Assembly (NCBI GenBank): GCA_016199935.1
Contig: JACQFS010000066.1
Span: 1-46,408 of the forward strand
Direction of reading: 5' to 3'
Length of the DNA stretch: 46,408 nt
Source: Verrucomicrobiota bacterium
GTDB taxonomy: Bacteria > Verrucomicrobiota > Verrucomicrobiia > Limisphaerales > JACQFS01
This document shows positions 2,433 to 45,939 of this stretch, in pieces. Position 1 is the stretch's first letter. Every line of letters begins with the position of its first letter. The position numbers were made by a program, and so were the translations under genes. The notes under the pieces are model-generated. The model searched no databases. It had not been told where the DNA came from and worked only from the letters and a program-made list of their open reading frames with translations.

Positions 2433-2514
2433 GTAGGGCGCGCTGTCCTCAGCGCGCCGCGAAAGCCGGGCGCGTTCGGCTTATCCGCGGCGCGGTGCGG
2501 ACACCGCGCCCTAC
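2433..2514. repeat. Palindromic repeat, family B, between yggU and tatD
   Basis: Large GC-rich inverted repeat. The left arm starts gtagggcgcgctgtcctcag (2433 on) and the right arm (2488-2514) is its reverse complement with three mismatches over 27 bases. The loop is about 26 bases. It lies between two convergent genes, and its right edge supplies the TAG stop codon of tatD (2511-2513). No T-tract follows on either strand. Confidence 0.8.
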
Positions 2515-7901: not shown

Positions 7902-7981
7902 GGTAGCAGCCGACGTGAGGAGGCTCCAACTATTTATTCGCCAGACGATTTGATCAGAGCCTCCTTACGTCGGCTGCTACC
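7902..7981. repeat. Palindromic repeat, family C, between purA and uppS
   Basis: Inverted repeat with 24-base arms at 7902-7925 (begins ggtagcagccgacgtgagg) and 7958-7981 (ends acgtcggctgctacc), one mismatch, and a 32-base loop. It occupies almost the whole gap between two co-directional genes. There is no T-tract after the right arm. I believe this motif recurs in verrucomicrobial genomes, but that is memory, not checked here. Confidence 0.85.
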
Positions 7982-17923: not shown

Positions 17924-17978
17924 TTACGGATTACTCCTTACTCGTTTCGCGGCATAATGAGTAAGGAGTAATCCGTAA
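17924..17978. repeat. Palindromic repeat, family A (copy 2), between HIT gene and phoH
   Basis: Perfect 20-base inverted repeat: ttacggattactccttactc at 17924-17943 and its exact reverse complement at 17959-17978, with a 15-base loop. It fills nearly all of the gap between the phoH start and the stop of the upstream HIT gene. The arm matches the repeat after sucD. No T-tract on either strand. Confidence 0.9.
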
Positions 17979-25914: not shown

Positions 25915-27213
25915 CTACTTCAGCCACTTCGGCACCGACTCGCCCGCCCACAACTCGGGCAGTTCTTGCCGCGCGCGCACCACGGCGGATTTGTTTCCGC
26001 TCACCAACACTTCGGCCGCCTGCGCGCGCGTGTTGTAGTTCGACGCCATCACGAAGCCGTAGGCCCCCGCGCTGAGCAGCGCGAGGTGATCGCCCTCGCC
26101 CACCTTCGGCAGCGGGCGGTTCTTGCAGAAATAATCGCCCGACTCGCAGATGGGGCCGACCACGTCGGAGGAAACGGGCGCGCCGCCCTGCTTCGTCAGC
26201 GGCACGATCTGGTGATACGAGTCATAGAACGCCGGGCGGATGAGATCGTTCATCGCGGCGTCCACGATCACGAAATTCTTTTTGCCCGTGCGCTTCACGT
26301 ATTCCACGCGCGTCACGAGGATGCCCGCGTTGCCACAGATGAAACGGCCCGGCTCCATCAGGATTTTCAGCCCGAGCGGCTTGAGCAAAGGCACAAGCGT
26401 GTTCGCGTAACTTTGCGGCGTGAGAATTTTCTTCGCCTTCGGCTGCTCCCACCACTTCGCGTCACCGCTGTCGAGCGCCGGGTCATAGACGATGCCCAGC
26501 CCGCCGCCGATGCTGAAGAACTCGAAGTCATATTTCCTCGCGAGCTTCGTGACGAGCGGCAGCACCTTCTTCACCGCCAACTCGAATGGCTTCACCTCGG
26601 TGAGCTGCGAACCGATGTGCATTTGGAGGCCGCGCAGGCGGAGATTCTTCAACCTGCTCGCGCGCGCATACACGCCTTCGACCTGCTCGAAGGCGATGCC
26701 GAATTTGTTTTCGTAGGTGCCGGTCGTGATCTTCGCGTGCGTGTGCGCGTCAATGTTCGGGTTCACGCGCACGGCGACGGGCGCGATTTTTTTCAGCCGC
26801 GCCGCGACTTTGTTGATGCGCCGCAGCTCCGGCTCGCTCTCGGCGTTGAAGCAGTAAATTCCCGCGCGCAGGGCGAACTCGATCTCGCACTCGGTCTTGC
26901 CCACGCCGGCGAAGACGCACTTGCGCAAATCGCCGCCCGCCGCCTTCACGCGGCGCAATTCCCCCTCGCTCACCGTGTCGAAGCCGCCGCCGAGATTCAC
27001 GATTGTGCGGAGCACGGCGAGATTGGAGTTGGCCTTGAGCGCGAAGCAGACGAGGTGATCGAGCGGCGCGAGCGCGGCATCGAGCTTGGCGAAATGATCG
27101 GCGAGCGTGTGCTGCGAATAGACGTAAAGCGGCGTGCCGTGCCGCTTCACGAGCGACTCGACGGACACGCGTTCGCAATACAGCTTCGAACCGACATAAC
27201 GGAAATCATGCAT
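25915..27213 (-). CDS. lysA: Diaminopimelate decarboxylase
   Basis: A 432-residue group IV PLP-dependent decarboxylase. The PLP lysine is K60 in CFALKANSN; GGGFDTVSEGEL, RVNPNIDAHTH, LQMHIGSQLTE, FSIGGGLGI, MEPGRFICGNAGI and ICESGDYF with the active-site Cys follow in family order. It makes lysine from meso-diaminopimelate. The length and motifs are normal, in contrast to the divergent relative at 44635. It stands apart from the signalling genes by 85 bases and from the SanA-like gene by 67 bases. Confidence 0.93.
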   Translation of the reverse strand: MHDFRYVGSKLYCERVSVESLVKRHGTPLYVYSQHTLADHFAKLDAALAPLDHLVCFALKANSNLAVLRTIVNLGGGFDTVSEGELRRVKAAGGDLRKCVFAGVGKTECEIEFALRAGIYCFNAESEPELRRINKVAARLKKIAPVAVRVNPNIDAHTHAKITTGTYENKFGIAFEQVEGVYARASRLKNLRLRGLQMHIGSQLTEVKPFELAVKKVLPLVTKLARKYDFEFFSIGGGLGIVYDPALDSGDAKWWEQPKAKKILTPQSYANTLVPLLKPLGLKILMEPGRFICGNAGILVTRVEYVKRTGKKNFVIVDAAMNDLIRPAFYDSYHQIVPLTKQGGAPVSSDVVGPICESGDYFCKNRPLPKVGEGDHLALLSAGAYGFVMASNYNTRAQAAEVLVSGNKSAVVRARQELPELWAGESVPKWLK

Positions 27214-30636: not shown

Positions 30637-30702
30637 GGGTTCGCGTTTGACAATGGAGGGTATCTCACGAGTCTTGCCGGACGCAATGCGCGGGATTGTT
30701 TT

Positions 30703-30780
30703 CAAGTTTTCAGGTTATCAAGTTGTCCGGTCCGCCGTGCGCAGATGACGCACCAGATAACTTGAAAACCTGACAACCTG
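30703..30780. repeat. Palindromic repeat, family E (copy 1), between TPR and HAD genes
   Basis: Inverted repeat made of TTTTCAGGTTATCAAGTTGTC-like units. The reverse complement of the left arm (30703-30727) matches the right arm (30756-30780) at about 21 of 25 positions. It lies between divergent genes, 12 bases before the GTG of the HAD gene. The same arm sequence recurs at 38466-38559. Confidence 0.8.
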
Positions 30781-34701: not shown

Positions 34702-34763
34702 GACACACGGATTTCACGGATGCACACGGATTCAATTCGTGCCAATCCGTGAAATCCGTGTCC
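34702..34763. repeat. Palindromic repeat, family F (copy 1), upstream of POTRA/Sel1 gene
   Basis: Inverted repeat with a perfect 17-base core: acacggatttcacggat at 34705-34721 and its reverse complement at 34745-34761, with a 23-base loop that itself carries an ACACGGATT unit. The right half (34729-34763) is repeated in direct orientation with changes at 37910-37943, at the other end of the gene. Confidence 0.85.
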
Positions 34764-38465: not shown

Positions 38466-38559
38466 ACGGTTTTCAGGTTTTCAGGTTTTCAAGTTTTCAA
38501 GTGCTTCGACTACGCCCCGTGCCGCACCTGACAACTTGATAACCTGAAAACCTGACAAC
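38466..38559. repeat. Palindromic repeat, family E (copy 2), between FmdB and Nudix genes
   Basis: The left arm (38468-38502) is built of ggttttcaggttttcaag-type 8-9 base units; the right arm (38527-38559) reads ctgacaacttgataacctg and then repeats the unit. The arms are complementary with slippage. The same sequence makes up the repeat at 30703-30780. It ends about 10 bases before the Nudix ATG. Confidence 0.85.
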
Positions 38560-39275: not shown

Positions 39276-40475
39276 ATGCGCCGGTTGCCGCCAGGATTCA
39301 AGCTGGGTGTTTACGCCCTCGAAGGTCTCAACACCTTCGCGTGCGCGTATTACGGCAACTACCTGCTCTTCCTCCTGCGCGACCGGCACGGCTTCGGCAA
39401 CGCGCAGAACCTCACGCTCGGCGCGTGCCACGGGCTGCTTTACGTCGGTGCGTCGCTCTACGCCGGAAAATTCGGGCAGCGCCGCGGCTACTTCACCTCG
39501 CTGCGCGTCGGCTTCGCCGGCATGGCGCTGGCAATGCTGGCGGCTTTGCTCCTGCCGCAACTGCCGGGGCAACTGCTGGCGTTCGGCGCGTGGACCGTCG
39601 CGATGTGTTTCACGTGGCCGATGCTCGAGGCGCTGGTGAGCGAGCACGCGGCTCCCGCGGCGTTGCCGCACCGGCTCGGGCTTTACAACCTCACGTGGGC
39701 TTCCATCTCGGCGACCGCTTACTTCACCGGCGGCATGATTTTCGAAAGAGTTGGGGCATCCAGTCTCTACTGGCTGCCAGCTTCGCTCTACGTCGTGAAT
39801 TTCATCGCCACCTTCCCGCTCGCCCGCGCGCATGACGCGTGGCTCGCGCGGCAAGATGCGGTGAGCCTCTCACAAGACAATGCAGCGGCGACGACCGACG
39901 AGCCCGGCCCGAGGCCGCGCTATTTCCTCAAACTCGCATGGCTCGGAAATCCCTTTGCCTACATGGCGATCAACACCTTCACCGCCGTCGTGCCCGGGAT
40001 CGCCAAGAACGCCGGTCTCACGATCGCGCAGGCGGGCATGGTGATGTCGGTGTGGTTCATCGTGCGCGCGGGGGCGTTCGTGGCGCTGTGGGCGTGGCAC
40101 GGGTGGCACTACAAGTTCCGTTGGTTCATCAGCGCGTTCGGCCTGCTCATCGCGAGCTTCGTGACCGTGATGCTCGCGCGCGAAATCTGGCTGCTCGTCG
40201 TCGCGCAGGTTTTCTTCGGCTGCGCGACCGGCCTCATTTACTACTCGTCGCTGTTTTACTCGATGGACGGCAGCGAGACGAAGGGCGAACACGGCGGCAC
40301 GCACGAGGCGCTCATCGGCGCGGGCATTTGCGGCGGGCCGGCGATTGGCGCGTTGAGCTTGTGGGTCGCGCCCGCGGCGGCGATGGCTCCGGCAATCGCG
40401 GTGGGCGCGATGCTCGTGGCGGGATTGGCGGGACTGATGGCAGTGCGGTGGCGCAAAATGACGAATGACGAATGA
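39276..40475 (+). CDS. Major facilitator superfamily transporter
   Basis: A 399-residue protein with about 11-12 membrane segments in two halves joined by a polar loop near 190-210. AGKFGQRRGYFTSLRVG between helices 2 and 3 is the MFS motif A region. Substrate is unknown; related proteins are annotated as sugar or general MFS permeases. The last six residues (KMTNDE) and the TGA stop are encoded by the left arm of the adjacent palindromic repeat, so the native C terminus may have been altered. fabI follows on the same strand. Confidence 0.87.
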   Translation: MRRLPPGFKLGVYALEGLNTFACAYYGNYLLFLLRDRHGFGNAQNLTLGACHGLLYVGASLYAGKFGQRRGYFTSLRVGFAGMALAMLAALLLPQLPGQLLAFGAWTVAMCFTWPMLEALVSEHAAPAALPHRLGLYNLTWASISATAYFTGGMIFERVGASSLYWLPASLYVVNFIATFPLARAHDAWLARQDAVSLSQDNAAATTDEPGPRPRYFLKLAWLGNPFAYMAINTFTAVVPGIAKNAGLTIAQAGMVMSVWFIVRAGAFVALWAWHGWHYKFRWFISAFGLLIASFVTVMLAREIWLLVVAQVFFGCATGLIYYSSLFYSMDGSETKGEHGGTHEALIGAGICGGPAIGALSLWVAPAAAMAPAIAVGAMLVAGLAGLMAVRWRKMTNDE

Positions 40476-40520
40476 CGAATGGTCCGGCCGGCCGCCTCGT
40501 CCATTCGTCATTCGTCATTT
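40456..40520. repeat. Palindromic repeat, family H, between MFS gene and fabI
   Basis: The left arm (40456-40482) is a tandem run of the 7-mer GACGAAT, and the right arm ccattcgtcattcgtcattt (40501-40520) pairs with its inner 20 bases at 19 positions. The 18-base loop is GC-rich (GGCCGGCC). The left arm contains the stop codon of the MFS gene (40473-40475). Confidence 0.9.
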
Positions 40521-41380: not shown

Positions 41381-42034
41381 ATGCCCAAATCACTCACCAT
41401 TCCGCTTCTGCAAAAGGAAGCCGCCGCATTCGCCAAGGCCGAGTCGAAGCACGTTGAGCCAAGCCTCTTTGGTGTCACCGATGGGAAAGCCGTCGGAACT
41501 TACCTTGAGCACAAATTCCAAGTCGCGCTTCAACGCCGCTTTGGATATGCGCGTGGCAATTCCGCCAAGGGCATTGATTTTCCGGAACTCGAAGTGGACA
41601 TCAAGGTGACCAGCATCCGGCAACCGCAGTCATCCTGCCCATTCAAGAGCGCGCGGCAGAAGATTTACGGGCTGGGCTACTCGTTGCTCGTTTTCGTTTA
41701 CGACAAACGCGATGACGAAGCCAATCGCACTGGGCGGCTCGATATTCAGCACACCATCTGTGTTGAGAAGGAGCGCACGGCCGATTTTCAGACCACATCC
41801 GGCCTGCTTCGCCTGCTGGCGAACAAGGCGAACCGCGACGACATCCTTGCGTTCTTTCAGGAGCGCCTGCTGCCGGTTGATGAAATCGAAGCCGGCAACC
41901 TTGCCGACGAAGTTCTCCGCTCCCCGCCGCAACCCGGCTACCTGACCATTTCAAACGCCTTGCAGTGGCGGCTTCAATACAGCCGCGTCATCGAGCAGGC
42001 TGGTGCAGTCGGTAGCATCCTTCGCTTGAAATGA
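41381..42034 (+). CDS. Putative type II restriction endonuclease
   Basis: A 217-residue protein. GTYLEHKFQVALQRRFGY and then GIDFPELEVDIKVTS give a PD-(D/E)xK-like core: D66, then D73-I-K75. SIRQPQSSCPFKSARQKIYG and GYLTISNALQWRLQYSRVIE look like conserved blocks I associate with uncharacterised restriction enzymes. The stop overlaps the methyltransferase start by 4 bases (ATGA), the strongest support for a restriction role. The recognition sequence is unknown. Composition is somewhat AT-richer than fabI. Nuclease activity is inference. Confidence 0.75.
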   Translation: MPKSLTIPLLQKEAAAFAKAESKHVEPSLFGVTDGKAVGTYLEHKFQVALQRRFGYARGNSAKGIDFPELEVDIKVTSIRQPQSSCPFKSARQKIYGLGYSLLVFVYDKRDDEANRTGRLDIQHTICVEKERTADFQTTSGLLRLLANKANRDDILAFFQERLLPVDEIEAGNLADEVLRSPPQPGYLTISNALQWRLQYSRVIEQAGAVGSILRLK

Positions 42035-43644
42035 AATCGAGCGCACAAGTTGAGTTCGGCGATTTCCAGACACCGCCGGTGCTGGCGAAGGAAGTTTGCG
42101 GACTCCTCCGCCGGCAGCGGCTGGTTCCGGATTTCGTTCTTGAGCCGACGTGTGGAATGGGGGCCTTTCTTGTTGCGGCTGCGGAAATGTTTCCCCGCGC
42201 GACCTTGCGGGGTTGGGACATCAACCAGGACTACGTTCGCCAGGCGACGGCGGAACTGGCACGCGTGGGCGCATTGAAGCGTGCCGCCGTGGCCCGCCAG
42301 GATTTTTTCGCGCACGACTGGGAGTCGGAGTTGCAGCAGTTGCCCGGCAGGCTGCTCATCCTCGGCAACCTGCCGTGGGTGACGAACTCCGCCGTCGCCG
42401 CGATGAACGGCAGCAACCTGCCGGTGAAGGAAAATTTTCTCGGCCTGCGCGGCCTCGCGGCACGCACGGGCAAATCCAACTTCGATATTTCCGAGTGGAT
42501 GCTTATCCGCCTTGTCCGCGCGCTGCGTGGCCGTGCCGCAACCATCGCGATGCTTTGCAAGACCGCGACGGCGCGAAAACTTTTGCGCTACTCGTGGCAA
42601 AACGACGGCCGCGTCAGCGAGGCGTCGCTGCATCGGATCGATGCCGCCGCGCACTTCGGTGCTTCGGTGGACGCCTGCCTGTTGCTCGCGCGCACCGGTT
42701 CCGCCGGGCCGGTGGAGGCGGACATTTACGAATCCCTCTCGGCGACAAAAACTGAAGGGCGAATTGGTTTGGCGGGACAGGATTTGGTCGCCGACATCCG
42801 CGCCTACCGTGAGTTGCAGCAGCTTGAAGGTCTTTGCCCCTTTCAATGGCGCTCCGGCGTCAAGCACGACTGCGCCGATGTCATGGAGCTTCGGCCTGTT
42901 GCCAACGGCACGGTGGAAAACAAACTCGGCGAGCACTTCGAGCTGGAGCCGGATTACCTCTACCCGCTCCTGAAATGCAGCGACCTCTCCAACGAACGCC
43001 TGACGCCTAAGCGTCTGGTGTTGGTGACGCAGCGCGGTGTGGGCGGCGACACGGCGTGCATTGCCTCCTTGGCTCCGCAGACTTGGCGCTATCTACAAAG
43101 CCATCGCGCCAAATTCGCGGCGCGCAAGAGTTCCATCTACAAGGGCCGTGTGCCGTTCGCCCTGTTCGGCATTGGCGAATATGCCTTCGCGCCGTGGAAA
43201 GTCGCCGTCTCCGCACTGCACCGGCCCGCGCGCTTTCAAGTCGTCGGTCCCTTCCATACCAAGCCAGTCTTCCTCGACGACACTTGCAACTACTTGCCCT
43301 TTGACGACGAAGCCTCGGCGCGTCTTGTGGCGGAAGTTCTGAACTCGGCTCCCTGTCAGCAGTTCCTGCAATCGCTCATCTTCACCGGCAACAAGCGCCC
43401 CATCACGGTCGAGTTGCTTCAGCGGTTGAATCTCGGCGCCATCGCGGACAAGGCTGGCCATGGACGACGCTGGCGGACTCTTCAGCACGAGCGCTATCAA
43501 CCAGCTTCGACCGTGCCGCAGATTGAACTGGTGATGGAATCCGCAAGGCCCACCCGACGCGCACCTTCCGCCAAAGTTGTCGTTTTGCGTTACCCTCACG
43601 CCCGGAACTCTCGGAAGAAACCGTCCCGATCCAAGACCGCATGA
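42031..43644 (+). CDS. DNA adenine methyltransferase of the restriction-modification pair
   Basis: A 537-residue protein. LEPTCGMGAFL (38-47) is the SAM-binding motif I, GWDINQDYV motif II, and GNLPW (N113-W116) the catalytic motif IV of N6-adenine (or N4-cytosine) methyltransferases, with Leu in place of the more common Pro. The C-terminal half (about 290-480: YPLLKCSDLSNERL; KSSIYKGRVPFALFGIGEYA; TKPVFLDDTCNYLPFDDE) resembles a target-recognition domain of the TaqI-like type. It would protect host DNA from the nuclease encoded upstream. It is translationally coupled to that gene. The basic C-terminal tail (HARNSRKKPSRSKTA) may bind DNA. Confidence 0.83.
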   Translation: MKSSAQVEFGDFQTPPVLAKEVCGLLRRQRLVPDFVLEPTCGMGAFLVAAAEMFPRATLRGWDINQDYVRQATAELARVGALKRAAVARQDFFAHDWESELQQLPGRLLILGNLPWVTNSAVAAMNGSNLPVKENFLGLRGLAARTGKSNFDISEWMLIRLVRALRGRAATIAMLCKTATARKLLRYSWQNDGRVSEASLHRIDAAAHFGASVDACLLLARTGSAGPVEADIYESLSATKTEGRIGLAGQDLVADIRAYRELQQLEGLCPFQWRSGVKHDCADVMELRPVANGTVENKLGEHFELEPDYLYPLLKCSDLSNERLTPKRLVLVTQRGVGGDTACIASLAPQTWRYLQSHRAKFAARKSSIYKGRVPFALFGIGEYAFAPWKVAVSALHRPARFQVVGPFHTKPVFLDDTCNYLPFDDEASARLVAEVLNSAPCQQFLQSLIFTGNKRPITVELLQRLNLGAIADKAGHGRRWRTLQHERYQPASTVPQIELVMESARPTRRAPSAKVVVLRYPHARNSRKKPSRSKTA

Positions 43645-43689: not shown

Positions 43690-44568
43690 ATGTCTGAGCA
43701 AGCTCTCCAAATCAAAAATTCCCTCGCCGCGGTGCAGGATCACACGCGGACATTCAGCGACTTCACGTTCATCTATCCGGTCATCTCGCGGCGTTCGCGC
43801 GGACTCTCCATCGGCATCAATTTGAACCCCGACAAGGTCTGCAACTTTGACTGCATCTACTGCTGCGTGGACCGGCGCGTCCCCGGCAAGGTGGCCGACC
43901 TGGACTTGAACCAGATGCGCGATGAGCTGAAGGCCATGATTCATTTCGCCCGTGACGGCGGGCTGGCGAAGGAGCCGAAATTCAACGAGGTCCCGTGGCT
44001 CACGCGAGACGTGCGCGACATCGCCTTCAGCGGCGATGGCGAACCGACGATGATTCACAACTTCGCCGAGTGCGTGCAGGCCGTCGCCGACGTGAAGAAG
44101 GCCGAGGGCTTGGACGGCGCCAAGATCGTGCTCATCACCGATGCCGCCGGACTCGACAAGACCGACGTGAAGCGCGGCTTGGAGATCATGGACGCGAACA
44201 ACGGCGAGGTCTGGGGCAAGCTCGACGCGGGCACGGAGGCTTACTTCCACACGATCAACCGCACGAACGTCCGCTTCGATCGCATTCTGAAAAATCTGCT
44301 GGAGACCGCGCGCGTCCGCCCGATCGTGATCCAGAGCATGTTCCTCAAGCTGCACGGCGTGGGGATTTCGGCCGCGGAACTGGAGGCGTATTGCGGGCGG
44401 CTGAACGACATCGTGCGCGGCGGCGGAAAAATCAAGGAGGTCCACGCCTACACCGTCGCGCGACCGACGCCCGAGGATTTCGTCACCAAGCTCACCACTG
44501 CGGAACTCAACGCCCTCGCTGAGACGATCCGCCAGAAGACCGGCCTGACGGTGTATGCGTTCGACTAG
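43690..44568 (+). CDS. Radical SAM protein (COG0731-like)
   Basis: A 292-residue protein. CNFDCIYC (C51, C55, C58) binds the 4Fe-4S cluster and SAM; FSGDGEPTM is the following Gly-rich SAM-contact strand. The order and length fit the COG0731 group, which includes wyosine-type tRNA enzymes in archaea and uncharacterised bacterial proteins. The bacterial substrate is unknown. It has a short gap (45 bases) after the methyltransferase and is followed by a palindromic repeat and a PLP decarboxylase-like gene on the same strand. Confidence 0.87.
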   Translation: MSEQALQIKNSLAAVQDHTRTFSDFTFIYPVISRRSRGLSIGINLNPDKVCNFDCIYCCVDRRVPGKVADLDLNQMRDELKAMIHFARDGGLAKEPKFNEVPWLTRDVRDIAFSGDGEPTMIHNFAECVQAVADVKKAEGLDGAKIVLITDAAGLDKTDVKRGLEIMDANNGEVWGKLDAGTEAYFHTINRTNVRFDRILKNLLETARVRPIVIQSMFLKLHGVGISAAELEAYCGRLNDIVRGGGKIKEVHAYTVARPTPEDFVTKLTTAELNALAETIRQKTGLTVYAFD

Positions 44569-44571
44569 CGC

Positions 44572-44633
44572 GGAGCGCAGAGCTCCAGCTCTGCGCGAAC
44601 ATACCAACCCGCGGAGCTGGAGTTCCGCGCTCC
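44572..44633. repeat. Palindromic repeat, family I, between radical SAM gene and decarboxylase-like gene
   Basis: 20-base arms ggagcgcagagctccagctc (44572-44591) and gagctggagttccgcgctcc (44614-44633) pair with two mismatches across a 22-base loop. The right arm ends one base before the ATG of the next gene, so the hairpin would mask its translation start. Confidence 0.9.
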
Positions 44634-44634
44634 A

Positions 44635-45939
44635 ATGAAATTCAACTTCGGTCATCCACCTGCGACCCTCGCCTTCTGGCGCGGCTTGGTTCGCGCCGCC
44701 CTCGTAGGAGGGACGAGCTCCGCGAGTCCCCATCTATCCCCCCGACCGGCGAAGTCAGGGACTCGCGGAGTTCGTCCCTCCGAAACGGTGACAACGCCCT
44801 TCTATCTGTTCTCCGCCGATCCGGTTCGCGAGGCCATTGGGGAACTGGAGGCGCTGGAGTTTGGTTTGCCCGCGGTCCACTGGCTCTCGTGCAAGACGCA
44901 GCCACTGGCGCCGCTGCTGCGTTGGTGGCGCAAACAGAACCGGCCCATCGAAGTGGTGAGCGAGTTTGAATTCCTCGCCGCGTTACACGAGGGCTTCGAG
45001 CCGCACCAGATTCTCATCAACGGCCCGGCCAAGCATCAGTGGCTCCCCAAGCACGCGCGGCGCGGGCTGCGGGTGAACTTCGATTCTCGCGCTGAACTCA
45101 ACGCGCTCCTGCCGCTGGCGAAGAAACTCGACTGGAGCGTCGGCGTGCGCGTGCTGACACGCGAGGAGTTCGATCCGGAGAATCCGCCGTGGCCGACGCA
45201 GTTTGGATTCGAGTTCGACGAGGCGGTCGGGGCGCTCAAGAAACTTCAGCGATCAAAGGCGCGCGTGGAGACGATCCATTTCCGCCTGCGCACCAATGGC
45301 GCGTCGCACGTGATATACGAGCGCGCCATCGCGGAGGTCGCGGAGATCTGCCGGTCGGCGAAGTTCGCGTCGCTCCACCTCGACATCGGCGGCGGGGTGC
45401 CGCCGCGGCACGTGCTCACGCGCGGCGGCAAGACTTACACGGCGGAGTTCAGTCTGAATGCGTTCGCGGCGATGCTGCGGCGCGGCGTGAAACAGTTTCC
45501 AGGACTGTGCGAGTTGTGGCTGGAGAACGGCCGCTTCGTCAGCGCGCGCTCAGGCGTGCTGGTGGTGAAGGTGCTCGACGTGAAGGAGCGGCGCGGGCTG
45601 CGGCAGTTGATCTGCGACGGCGGGCGGACGATGAACGCGCTCATCTCGACCTGGGAGCAGCACGAACTTTTTTCCATCCCAGAGCGGCGCGGGCAAAACG
45701 CGATGACGGCGGTGCATGGCCCGACGTGCATGGCCTTCGACCAGTTCACACGGCGCGAACTGCCGCGCTCCATCCGCGCGGGCGACCATCTCGTGTGGAT
45801 GGACGCGGGCGCGTATCACCTGCCGTGGGAGACACGCTTCTCGCACGGGCTGGCGGCGGTGCTATGGCACGAAAACGGAAAAATCGAACGGGCACGGTCG
45901 GCGGAGTCGTTCGATTCGTGGTGGGCGCAGTGGCGGTGA
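44635..45939 (+). CDS. Divergent group IV PLP-dependent decarboxylase
   Basis: A 434-residue protein of the ornithine/diaminopimelate/carboxynorspermidine decarboxylase fold. The PLP lysine is K87 in WLSCKTQPLAPLL; HLDIGGGVPPRH is the phosphate-binding Gly-rich loop; GPTCMAFDQF carries the active-site Cys and DAGAYHLPW the Tyr. HxGS is replaced by HFRLRTNG and EPGR by ENGR, so it is not a standard LysA; the normal lysA is at 25915. Residues 24-50 (LVGGTSSA to RPSE) are encoded by an in-frame palindromic repeat between the N terminus and TPFYLFSADPV. The substrate is unknown. A later start at about 44790 would avoid the repeat but no good start codon is seen there. Confidence 0.8.
   Translation: MKFNFGHPPATLAFWRGLVRAALVGGTSSASPHLSPRPAKSGTRGVRPSETVTTPFYLFSADPVREAIGELEALEFGLPAVHWLSCKTQPLAPLLRWWRKQNRPIEVVSEFEFLAALHEGFEPHQILINGPAKHQWLPKHARRGLRVNFDSRAELNALLPLAKKLDWSVGVRVLTREEFDPENPPWPTQFGFEFDEAVGALKKLQRSKARVETIHFRLRTNGASHVIYERAIAEVAEICRSAKFASLHLDIGGGVPPRHVLTRGGKTYTAEFSLNAFAAMLRRGVKQFPGLCELWLENGRFVSARSGVLVVKVLDVKERRGLRQLICDGGRTMNALISTWEQHELFSIPERRGQNAMTAVHGPTCMAFDQFTRRELPRSIRAGDHLVWMDAGAYHLPWETRFSHGLAAVLWHENGKIERARSAESFDSWWAQWR
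44704..44784. repeat. Palindromic repeat, family J, in frame inside the decarboxylase-like gene
   Basis: 24-base arms at 44707-44730 (begins ggagggacgagctccgcgag) and 44758-44781 pair with one mismatch across a 27-base loop. The element has no stop in the reading frame and encodes about 27 residues between two otherwise contiguous parts of the enzyme. It is the only complete hairpin in a coding region of this window. Confidence 0.9.

What the first reader, a model, noticed from the sequence alone, without database searches (positions are those of the whole stretch)
44704..44784. Complete hairpin repeat inserted in frame into a decarboxylase-like enzyme
Arms with 23 of 24 paired bases lie inside the coding region, add about 27 residues with no stop, and separate the N terminus from the conserved TPFYLF strand. 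It resembles the in-frame palindromic elements (RPE) of Rickettsia proteins, but the sequence is unrelated. Together with the hairpin ending one base before the ATG, this gene carries two different repeat families within 150 bases.
Basis: partly seen in the sequence, partly recalled or inferred. Interest (0 to 1): 0.66.

Follow-up and report, generated by a model that had tools for sequence, protein, structure and literature searches.

The report
Mobile hairpin repeat inside an enzyme
A small mobile DNA hairpin has landed inside a bacterial decarboxylase gene without breaking its reading frame, apparently adding a floppy 25-residue loop; dozens of such in-frame hairpins sit in other conserved genes of this genome, a phenomenon already described in relatives but here involving repeat families with a new end tag.

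Summary
A 75-nt hairpin (44707-44781, 23 of 24 arm bases paired) lies in phase 0 inside a fold-type-III PLP decarboxylase gene (44635-45939). All 14 orthologues found keep the helix before it (F14 W15 invariant) and the TPFYLF strand after it, and none has the block; taking out the 75 nt leaves a 5-residue linker like theirs. The element is one of about 31 dispersed copies. Each arm is a REP (tag GGAG plus imperfect palindrome); two face each other around a variable spacer: a REPIN. The hairpin just before the ATG is a second GGAG-tagged family. Of 114 REPINs sampled here (4 families) 36 lie in frame inside genes (hisC, nuoM, mfd, uvrA twice, trpC, hemL...); none was seen to break a frame. In a relative, GGAG-tagged REPs flank RAYT genes. 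Best reading: RAYT-mobilised REPINs tolerated in flexible loops. Intragenic REP dimers were reported in Opitutus terrae (same phylum) in 2013 (PMC3733652), and Rickettsia RPE-4/-6 are REP-like, so the kind is known; the GGAG-tagged families are the new part. Translation of the insert is not proven.

The parts
44635..45939 (+). host gene: fold-type-III PLP decarboxylase of the diaminopimelate/ornithine decarboxylase superfamily, 434 aa with the insert
   Evidence: Pfam PF02784 and PF00278 above cut-off; AlphaFold model closest to DapDC structures; 14 orthologues 48-65% identical
44707..44781 (+). REP-1 REPIN inserted in frame (25 codons: GGTSSASPHLSPRPAKSGTRGVRPS)
44707..44730 (+). left REP: tag GGAG + imperfect palindrome (GGGAC-GA-GC-TCC-GC-GA-GTCCC)
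   Evidence: arm consensus from 48 arms
44731..44757 (+). variable spacer of the REPIN (27 nt; 15-31 nt in the family)
44758..44781 (-). right REP, inverted; one difference from the consensus (GAGTTCG for GAGCTCG on the + strand)
44572..44633 (+). REP-2 REPIN filling the gap between the stop of the radical SAM gene (TAG 44566-44568) and the ATG at 44635
44635..44706 (+). conserved N-terminal segment upstream of the insert (MKFNFGHPPATLAFWRGLVRAALV), a helix in the model
44794..44811 (+). conserved TPFYLF strand downstream of the insert (residues 54-59)

Best explanation
The hairpin is a REPIN: two copies of a GGAG-tagged REP in head-to-head inverted orientation around a non-conserved spacer, belonging to a dispersed family (REP-1) of this verrucomicrobial genome. 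It is a non-autonomous element, most likely copied by a single-strand REP-associated tyrosine transposase (RAYT, Y1/HUH family), either one of the genome's own or a lost one (inferred). It inserted between the N-terminal helix and the first strand of the decarboxylase, in phase and stop-free, and is most likely translated as a hydrophilic disordered 25-residue loop that the enzyme tolerates. Insertions that break frames or hit protein cores were removed by selection, leaving the in-frame ones seen in dozens of genes. Shown: insertion relative to orthologues, family, REP anatomy, frame retention, the loop position in a predicted model. Inferred: mobilisation by a RAYT, translation, neutrality.
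For: Block absent from 14 of 14 orthologues with both flanks conserved. Removing 75 nt gives linker VETVT, 5 residues as in two orthologues. Family of about 31 places. Arms carry GGAG in 43 of 48 (REP-1) and 69 of 72 (REP-2); spacers vary in length and sequence. In REP-2, pair 8-21 inside one arm is G-C 36 times and A-T 31 times of 72, while the two arms of one element differ at that position in 30 of 36, so the single-arm hairpin is what is conserved. 36 of 114 REPINs lie in frame in genes; the 7 suspected frame breaks read as gene junctions. Host genes give family hits on both sides of inserts, e.g. hisC, nuoM, mfd, uvrA, trpC, hemL. AlphaFold: residues 31-48 under 50 pLDDT, helix 9-24 and strand 56-60 predicted. 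RAYT genes in a relative (L237, L239) are flanked by GGAG-tagged REPs; the own genome has a RAYT with GTAG-tagged REPs beside it.
Against: No RAYT was found next to REP-1 or REP-2 in the own genome, so the mobilising enzyme for this family is not identified. No close strain with an empty site is in the collections; orthologues are from other families of the order. In-frame copies have core lengths of all three residues modulo 3, so insertion of one fixed unit does not explain all frames; small indels or target loss must be assumed. No proteomic evidence.
Confidence: 0.87

Rival explanations
1. True translation starts downstream of the hairpin (for example GTG 44788), so the repeat is in the 5' untranslated region.
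For: Codon scoring alone prefers GTG 44788 as start; REPs near N termini are often mis-annotated as coding (PMC3733652).
Against: The upstream segment MKFNFGHPPATLAFWRGLVRAAL is homologous to orthologue N termini; F14 and W15 are invariant in 15 of 15 and lie in a confidently predicted helix. Starting at 44788 would delete it.
Confidence: 0.07
2. The insertion inactivated the gene; it is a recent pseudogene whose frame is open by chance.
For: An insert near the N terminus could hurt folding or the dimer; a random 75-nt insert of this family is open in about half of the frames.
Against: The frame is intact for 434 codons and all columns invariant among orthologues are kept; the same kind of insert occurs in frame in genes expected to be important, such as hisC, nuoM, uvrA and hemL.
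Confidence: 0.06
3. The inserted peptides are functionally adaptive (exapted) and kept by positive selection.
For: The same loops are hit repeatedly: the hisC loop has REP-1 in two families of the order; another gene has REP-2 in this genome and REP-1 in a relative at one loop.
Against: The hisC loop and both uvrA loops are length-variable in relatives without a REP there, so tolerance suffices; peptides differ in frame, orientation and family.
Confidence: 0.06
4. Element of the Rickettsia RPE type unrelated to REPs.
For: Same outcome: in-frame palindrome in proteins.
Against: Anatomy is a dimer of GGAG-tagged REPs, not CGTC-tagged and not the longer RPE-1 type.
Confidence: 0.02

Closest known systems
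Intragenic GTAG REP dimers of Opitutus terrae and others (Di Nocera and colleagues 2013, PMC3733652)
   Same: Dimers of tagged palindromes inside known genes, 20-30 aa, several per genome, two in uvrA, in the phylum Verrucomicrobia
   Different: Tags here are GGAG for the two families at this gene; the paper gives GTAG with degeneracies GYAG, GYRG, GTRG, GTMG, GTGG, and CGTC; other species and sequences
REPINs of Pseudomonas fluorescens SBW25 (Bertels and Rainey 2011, PMC3116915)
   Same: Two inverted REPs plus spacer as the dispersed unit, associated with RAYTs
   Different: There nearly all are extragenic (14 16-mers overlap genes); here about a third of the sampled ones are in frame in genes
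Rickettsia palindromic elements (RPE; reviewed in PMC10969869)
   Same: In-frame palindromic elements in unrelated protein genes
   Different: Different sequence and length; RPE-4 and RPE-6 carry a CGTC tag according to PMC3733652

Membership tests
REPIN | two REPs in inverted orientation with a spacer, forming a hairpin | tested here: met
   24 REP-1 doublets, spacers 15-31 nt
REPIN | each REP is a (often imperfect) palindrome next to a conserved tetranucleotide tag | tested here: met
   GGAG in 43 of 48 arms; arm folds as 5 bp, tandem GA mismatch, 2 bp, 3-nt loop. The fold of one REP-1 arm alone is not better than shuffles (z -0.67); the REP-2 arm is (z -3.0) and shows compensatory changes
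REPIN | dispersed and multicopy in one genome | tested here: met
REPIN | cognate RAYT gene flanked by the same REP | tested here: inconclusive
   not found for REP-1 or REP-2 in the own genome; GGAG-tagged REPs of other sequence flank RAYTs in relative G002
REP in the strict sense of the name | extragenic location | tested here: not met
   this copy is intragenic; about two thirds of sampled doublets are extragenic or at gene ends
GTAG REP super-family | GTAG tag (with the listed degeneracies) | tested here: not met
   tag is GGAG; REP-3 and REP-4 of the same genome do meet it
Rickettsia RPE-4/RPE-6 (CGTC REPs) | CGTC tag | tested here: not met
   tag GGAG in the arms
Diaminopimelate decarboxylase LysA (host gene) | NCBIfam equivalog score above cut-off | tested here: not met
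   TIGR01048 101.9 bits against 297.9; superfamily membership is met; a second LysA-like ORF lies at 25915-27213

The most novel reading that the evidence does not exclude
In this order of Verrucomicrobia several REPIN families act as a standing source of new protein loop segments: the same permissive loops of housekeeping proteins are hit again by different families, some inserts (hisC) persist beyond family-level divergence, and GGAG-tagged REP/RAYT pairs form a distinct lineage.
Probability: 0.25. Interest if true: 0.65.

Novelty: new variant of a known kind. Interest (0 to 1): 0.48.

Why it matters
It offers a natural experiment on how short mobile DNA adds peptide segments to folded enzymes, with host, frame and loop known for dozens of cases in one genome. 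It extends RAYT-associated REPs to a GGAG tag, and warns annotators that 20-30 residue blocks of this kind in such genomes are repeats, not conserved domains.

Tried and rejected
Idea that GGAG tags favour coding insertion because they avoid the TAG of GTAG: rejected, GTAG-tagged REP-4 is in frame at least as often (14 of 40) although only 36% of its frames are open against 81% for REP-2. Seven apparent frame-breaking copies: read one by one and rejected as gene junctions. A genome-contig scan with the protein gave one extra orthologue only. A literature search for a GGAG tag found nothing relevant. RAYT genes of the own genome were searched for REP-1/REP-2 neighbours without success.

Full report
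Observation. Arms 44707-44730 and 44758-44781 pair at 23 of 24 positions around a 27-nt spacer, the single strand folds far better than shuffles (z -7.4), and no match is expected by chance. It starts at phase 0 of the ORF that begins at ATG 44635 and is exactly 25 codons without a stop.

Insertion test. Fourteen orthologues (48-65% identical) were found: thirteen in other genomes of the order and one in a named Verrucomicrobia MAG. In the alignment every orthologue keeps the N-terminal helix with invariant F14 and W15, and the TP-x-x-x-F strand, and none has the window's block between them. Removing 75 nt leaves the linker VETVT, 5 residues as in L023 and L031; removing 78 nt leaves 4, as in others, so the exact ends cannot be fixed. 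The conserved upstream helix indicates that translation starts before the repeat. AlphaFold puts the insert in a low-confidence loop (residues 31-48 under 50 pLDDT) between helix 9-24 and strand 56-60. The host is a member of the diaminopimelate/ornithine decarboxylase superfamily, not a LysA equivalog.

What the element is. The same arms recur at about 31 places in this genome. Arms are conserved, spacers are not. Each arm is a tag GGAG followed by an imperfect palindrome, and two arms face each other: a REPIN. The hairpin before the ATG belongs to another family (REP-2, 36 doublets examined), GGAG plus an 8-bp palindrome. In REP-2 the paired positions within one arm covary (G-C 36, A-T 31 of 72 at pair 8-21) while the two arms of one element differ at that position in 30 of 36, so the small hairpin is the conserved unit, as expected for a substrate of a REP-associated tyrosine transposase (the expectation rests on PMC8266576). 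Two further families in the window, at 2433-2514 and 7902-7981, carry GTAG tags.

Genome-wide pattern. Of 114 REPINs of four families at fetched places, 35 were scored in frame inside coding sequence, plus the window one. The scoring is codon-based; 20 of these proteins were then compared with NCBIfam and many match one family on both sides of the insert: HisC, NuoM, Mfd, a pseudouridine synthase, TrpC, UvrA (two inserts, REP-2 and REP-3), BioA, HemL, CstA, an Aas-type ligase, a sugar ABC ATPase, a SNF2 helicase. Seven apparent frame breaks are gene junctions on reading. The encoded peptides are hydrophilic (mean GRAVY -0.99). The hisC loop and both uvrA loops vary in length among relatives that have no REP there. 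REP-1 sits in the same hisC loop in relative G002, and one further gene has REP-2 in this genome and REP-1 in G002 at the same loop.

Mobilisation. The own genome has four Y1 transposase genes, one at the RAYT cut-off (80.2 bits, cut-off 80) with GTAG-tagged REPs next to it, none beside REP-1 or REP-2. In G002 the RAYT genes at L237 (76.9 bits, just under the cut-off) and L239 (87.7 bits) have GGAG-tagged REPs on both sides. So GGAG is a RAYT-associated tag, but the enzyme for REP-1 is inferred.

Comparison. Intragenic REP dimers of 20-30 aa, most numerous in Opitutus terrae and including doubly hit uvrA genes, were reported in 2013 (PMC3733652); that paper also ties Rickettsia RPE-4 and RPE-6 to CGTC-tagged REPs. 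REPINs as units come from PMC3116915. The present case is therefore a further example of a known phenomenon. New here, as far as the papers held show, are the GGAG-tagged families, their RAYT association in a relative, the orthologue proof for this gene, and the use of one loop by different families.

Limits. The genome is a fragmented assembly (260 contigs, 97.7% complete, 4.3% contamination); the census is not exhaustive, and the searches for REP-2 to REP-4 scored only the best 40 candidates; some REP-4 calls have arms with 3-5 mismatches. That the organism is a verrucomicrobium is inferred from the nearest named orthologue. No expression data exist.

Noticed in passing
window 2433-2514 and 7902-7981: Two further REPIN families with GTAG tags (REP-3, REP-4), each with about 20 to 40 places found in the genome.
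   Followed up: yes
L054 and L135 (uvrA of this genome): The uvrA gene carries two in-frame REPINs of different families, as reported for Opitutus terrae uvrA; both sites are length-variable loops in orthologues.
   Followed up: yes
L062 (hisC) and L175/L186 (hisC of relative G002): REP-1 in frame in the same hypervariable hisC loop in two families of the order, both 64 nt long; shared or independent origin not settled.
   Followed up: partly
L256 2-3600, minus strand (relative G002): A RAYT gene with a GGAG-tagged REPIN sits between the N-terminal and C-terminal parts of alaS, which are in different frames; the downstream alaS part carries another similar insert. Split enzyme, disruption or assembly error not settled.
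   Followed up: partly
L020 1501-2829, minus strand (decarboxylase orthologue of G029): The orthologue has its own in-frame insert with a GGAG-tagged palindrome in a different loop (about residues 52-87).
   Followed up: partly
window 41381-43644: A restriction-endonuclease-like ORF and a methyltransferase-like ORF; in L019 and L023 a fabI-like gene end lies directly before the decarboxylase. Judged from translations only.
   Followed up: no
window 38468-38559, 30698-30769, 40456-40520, 34705-34761, 17924-17978: Other inverted repeats built of short repeated motifs such as GTTTTCAGG, AATGACGAATGACG and ACACGGATT; not REP-like.
   Followed up: no
G013 (relative): Hundreds of REP-1-like candidates, some in tandem with about 97-nt spacing, and about 30 Y1 transposase matches, many partial.
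   Followed up: no
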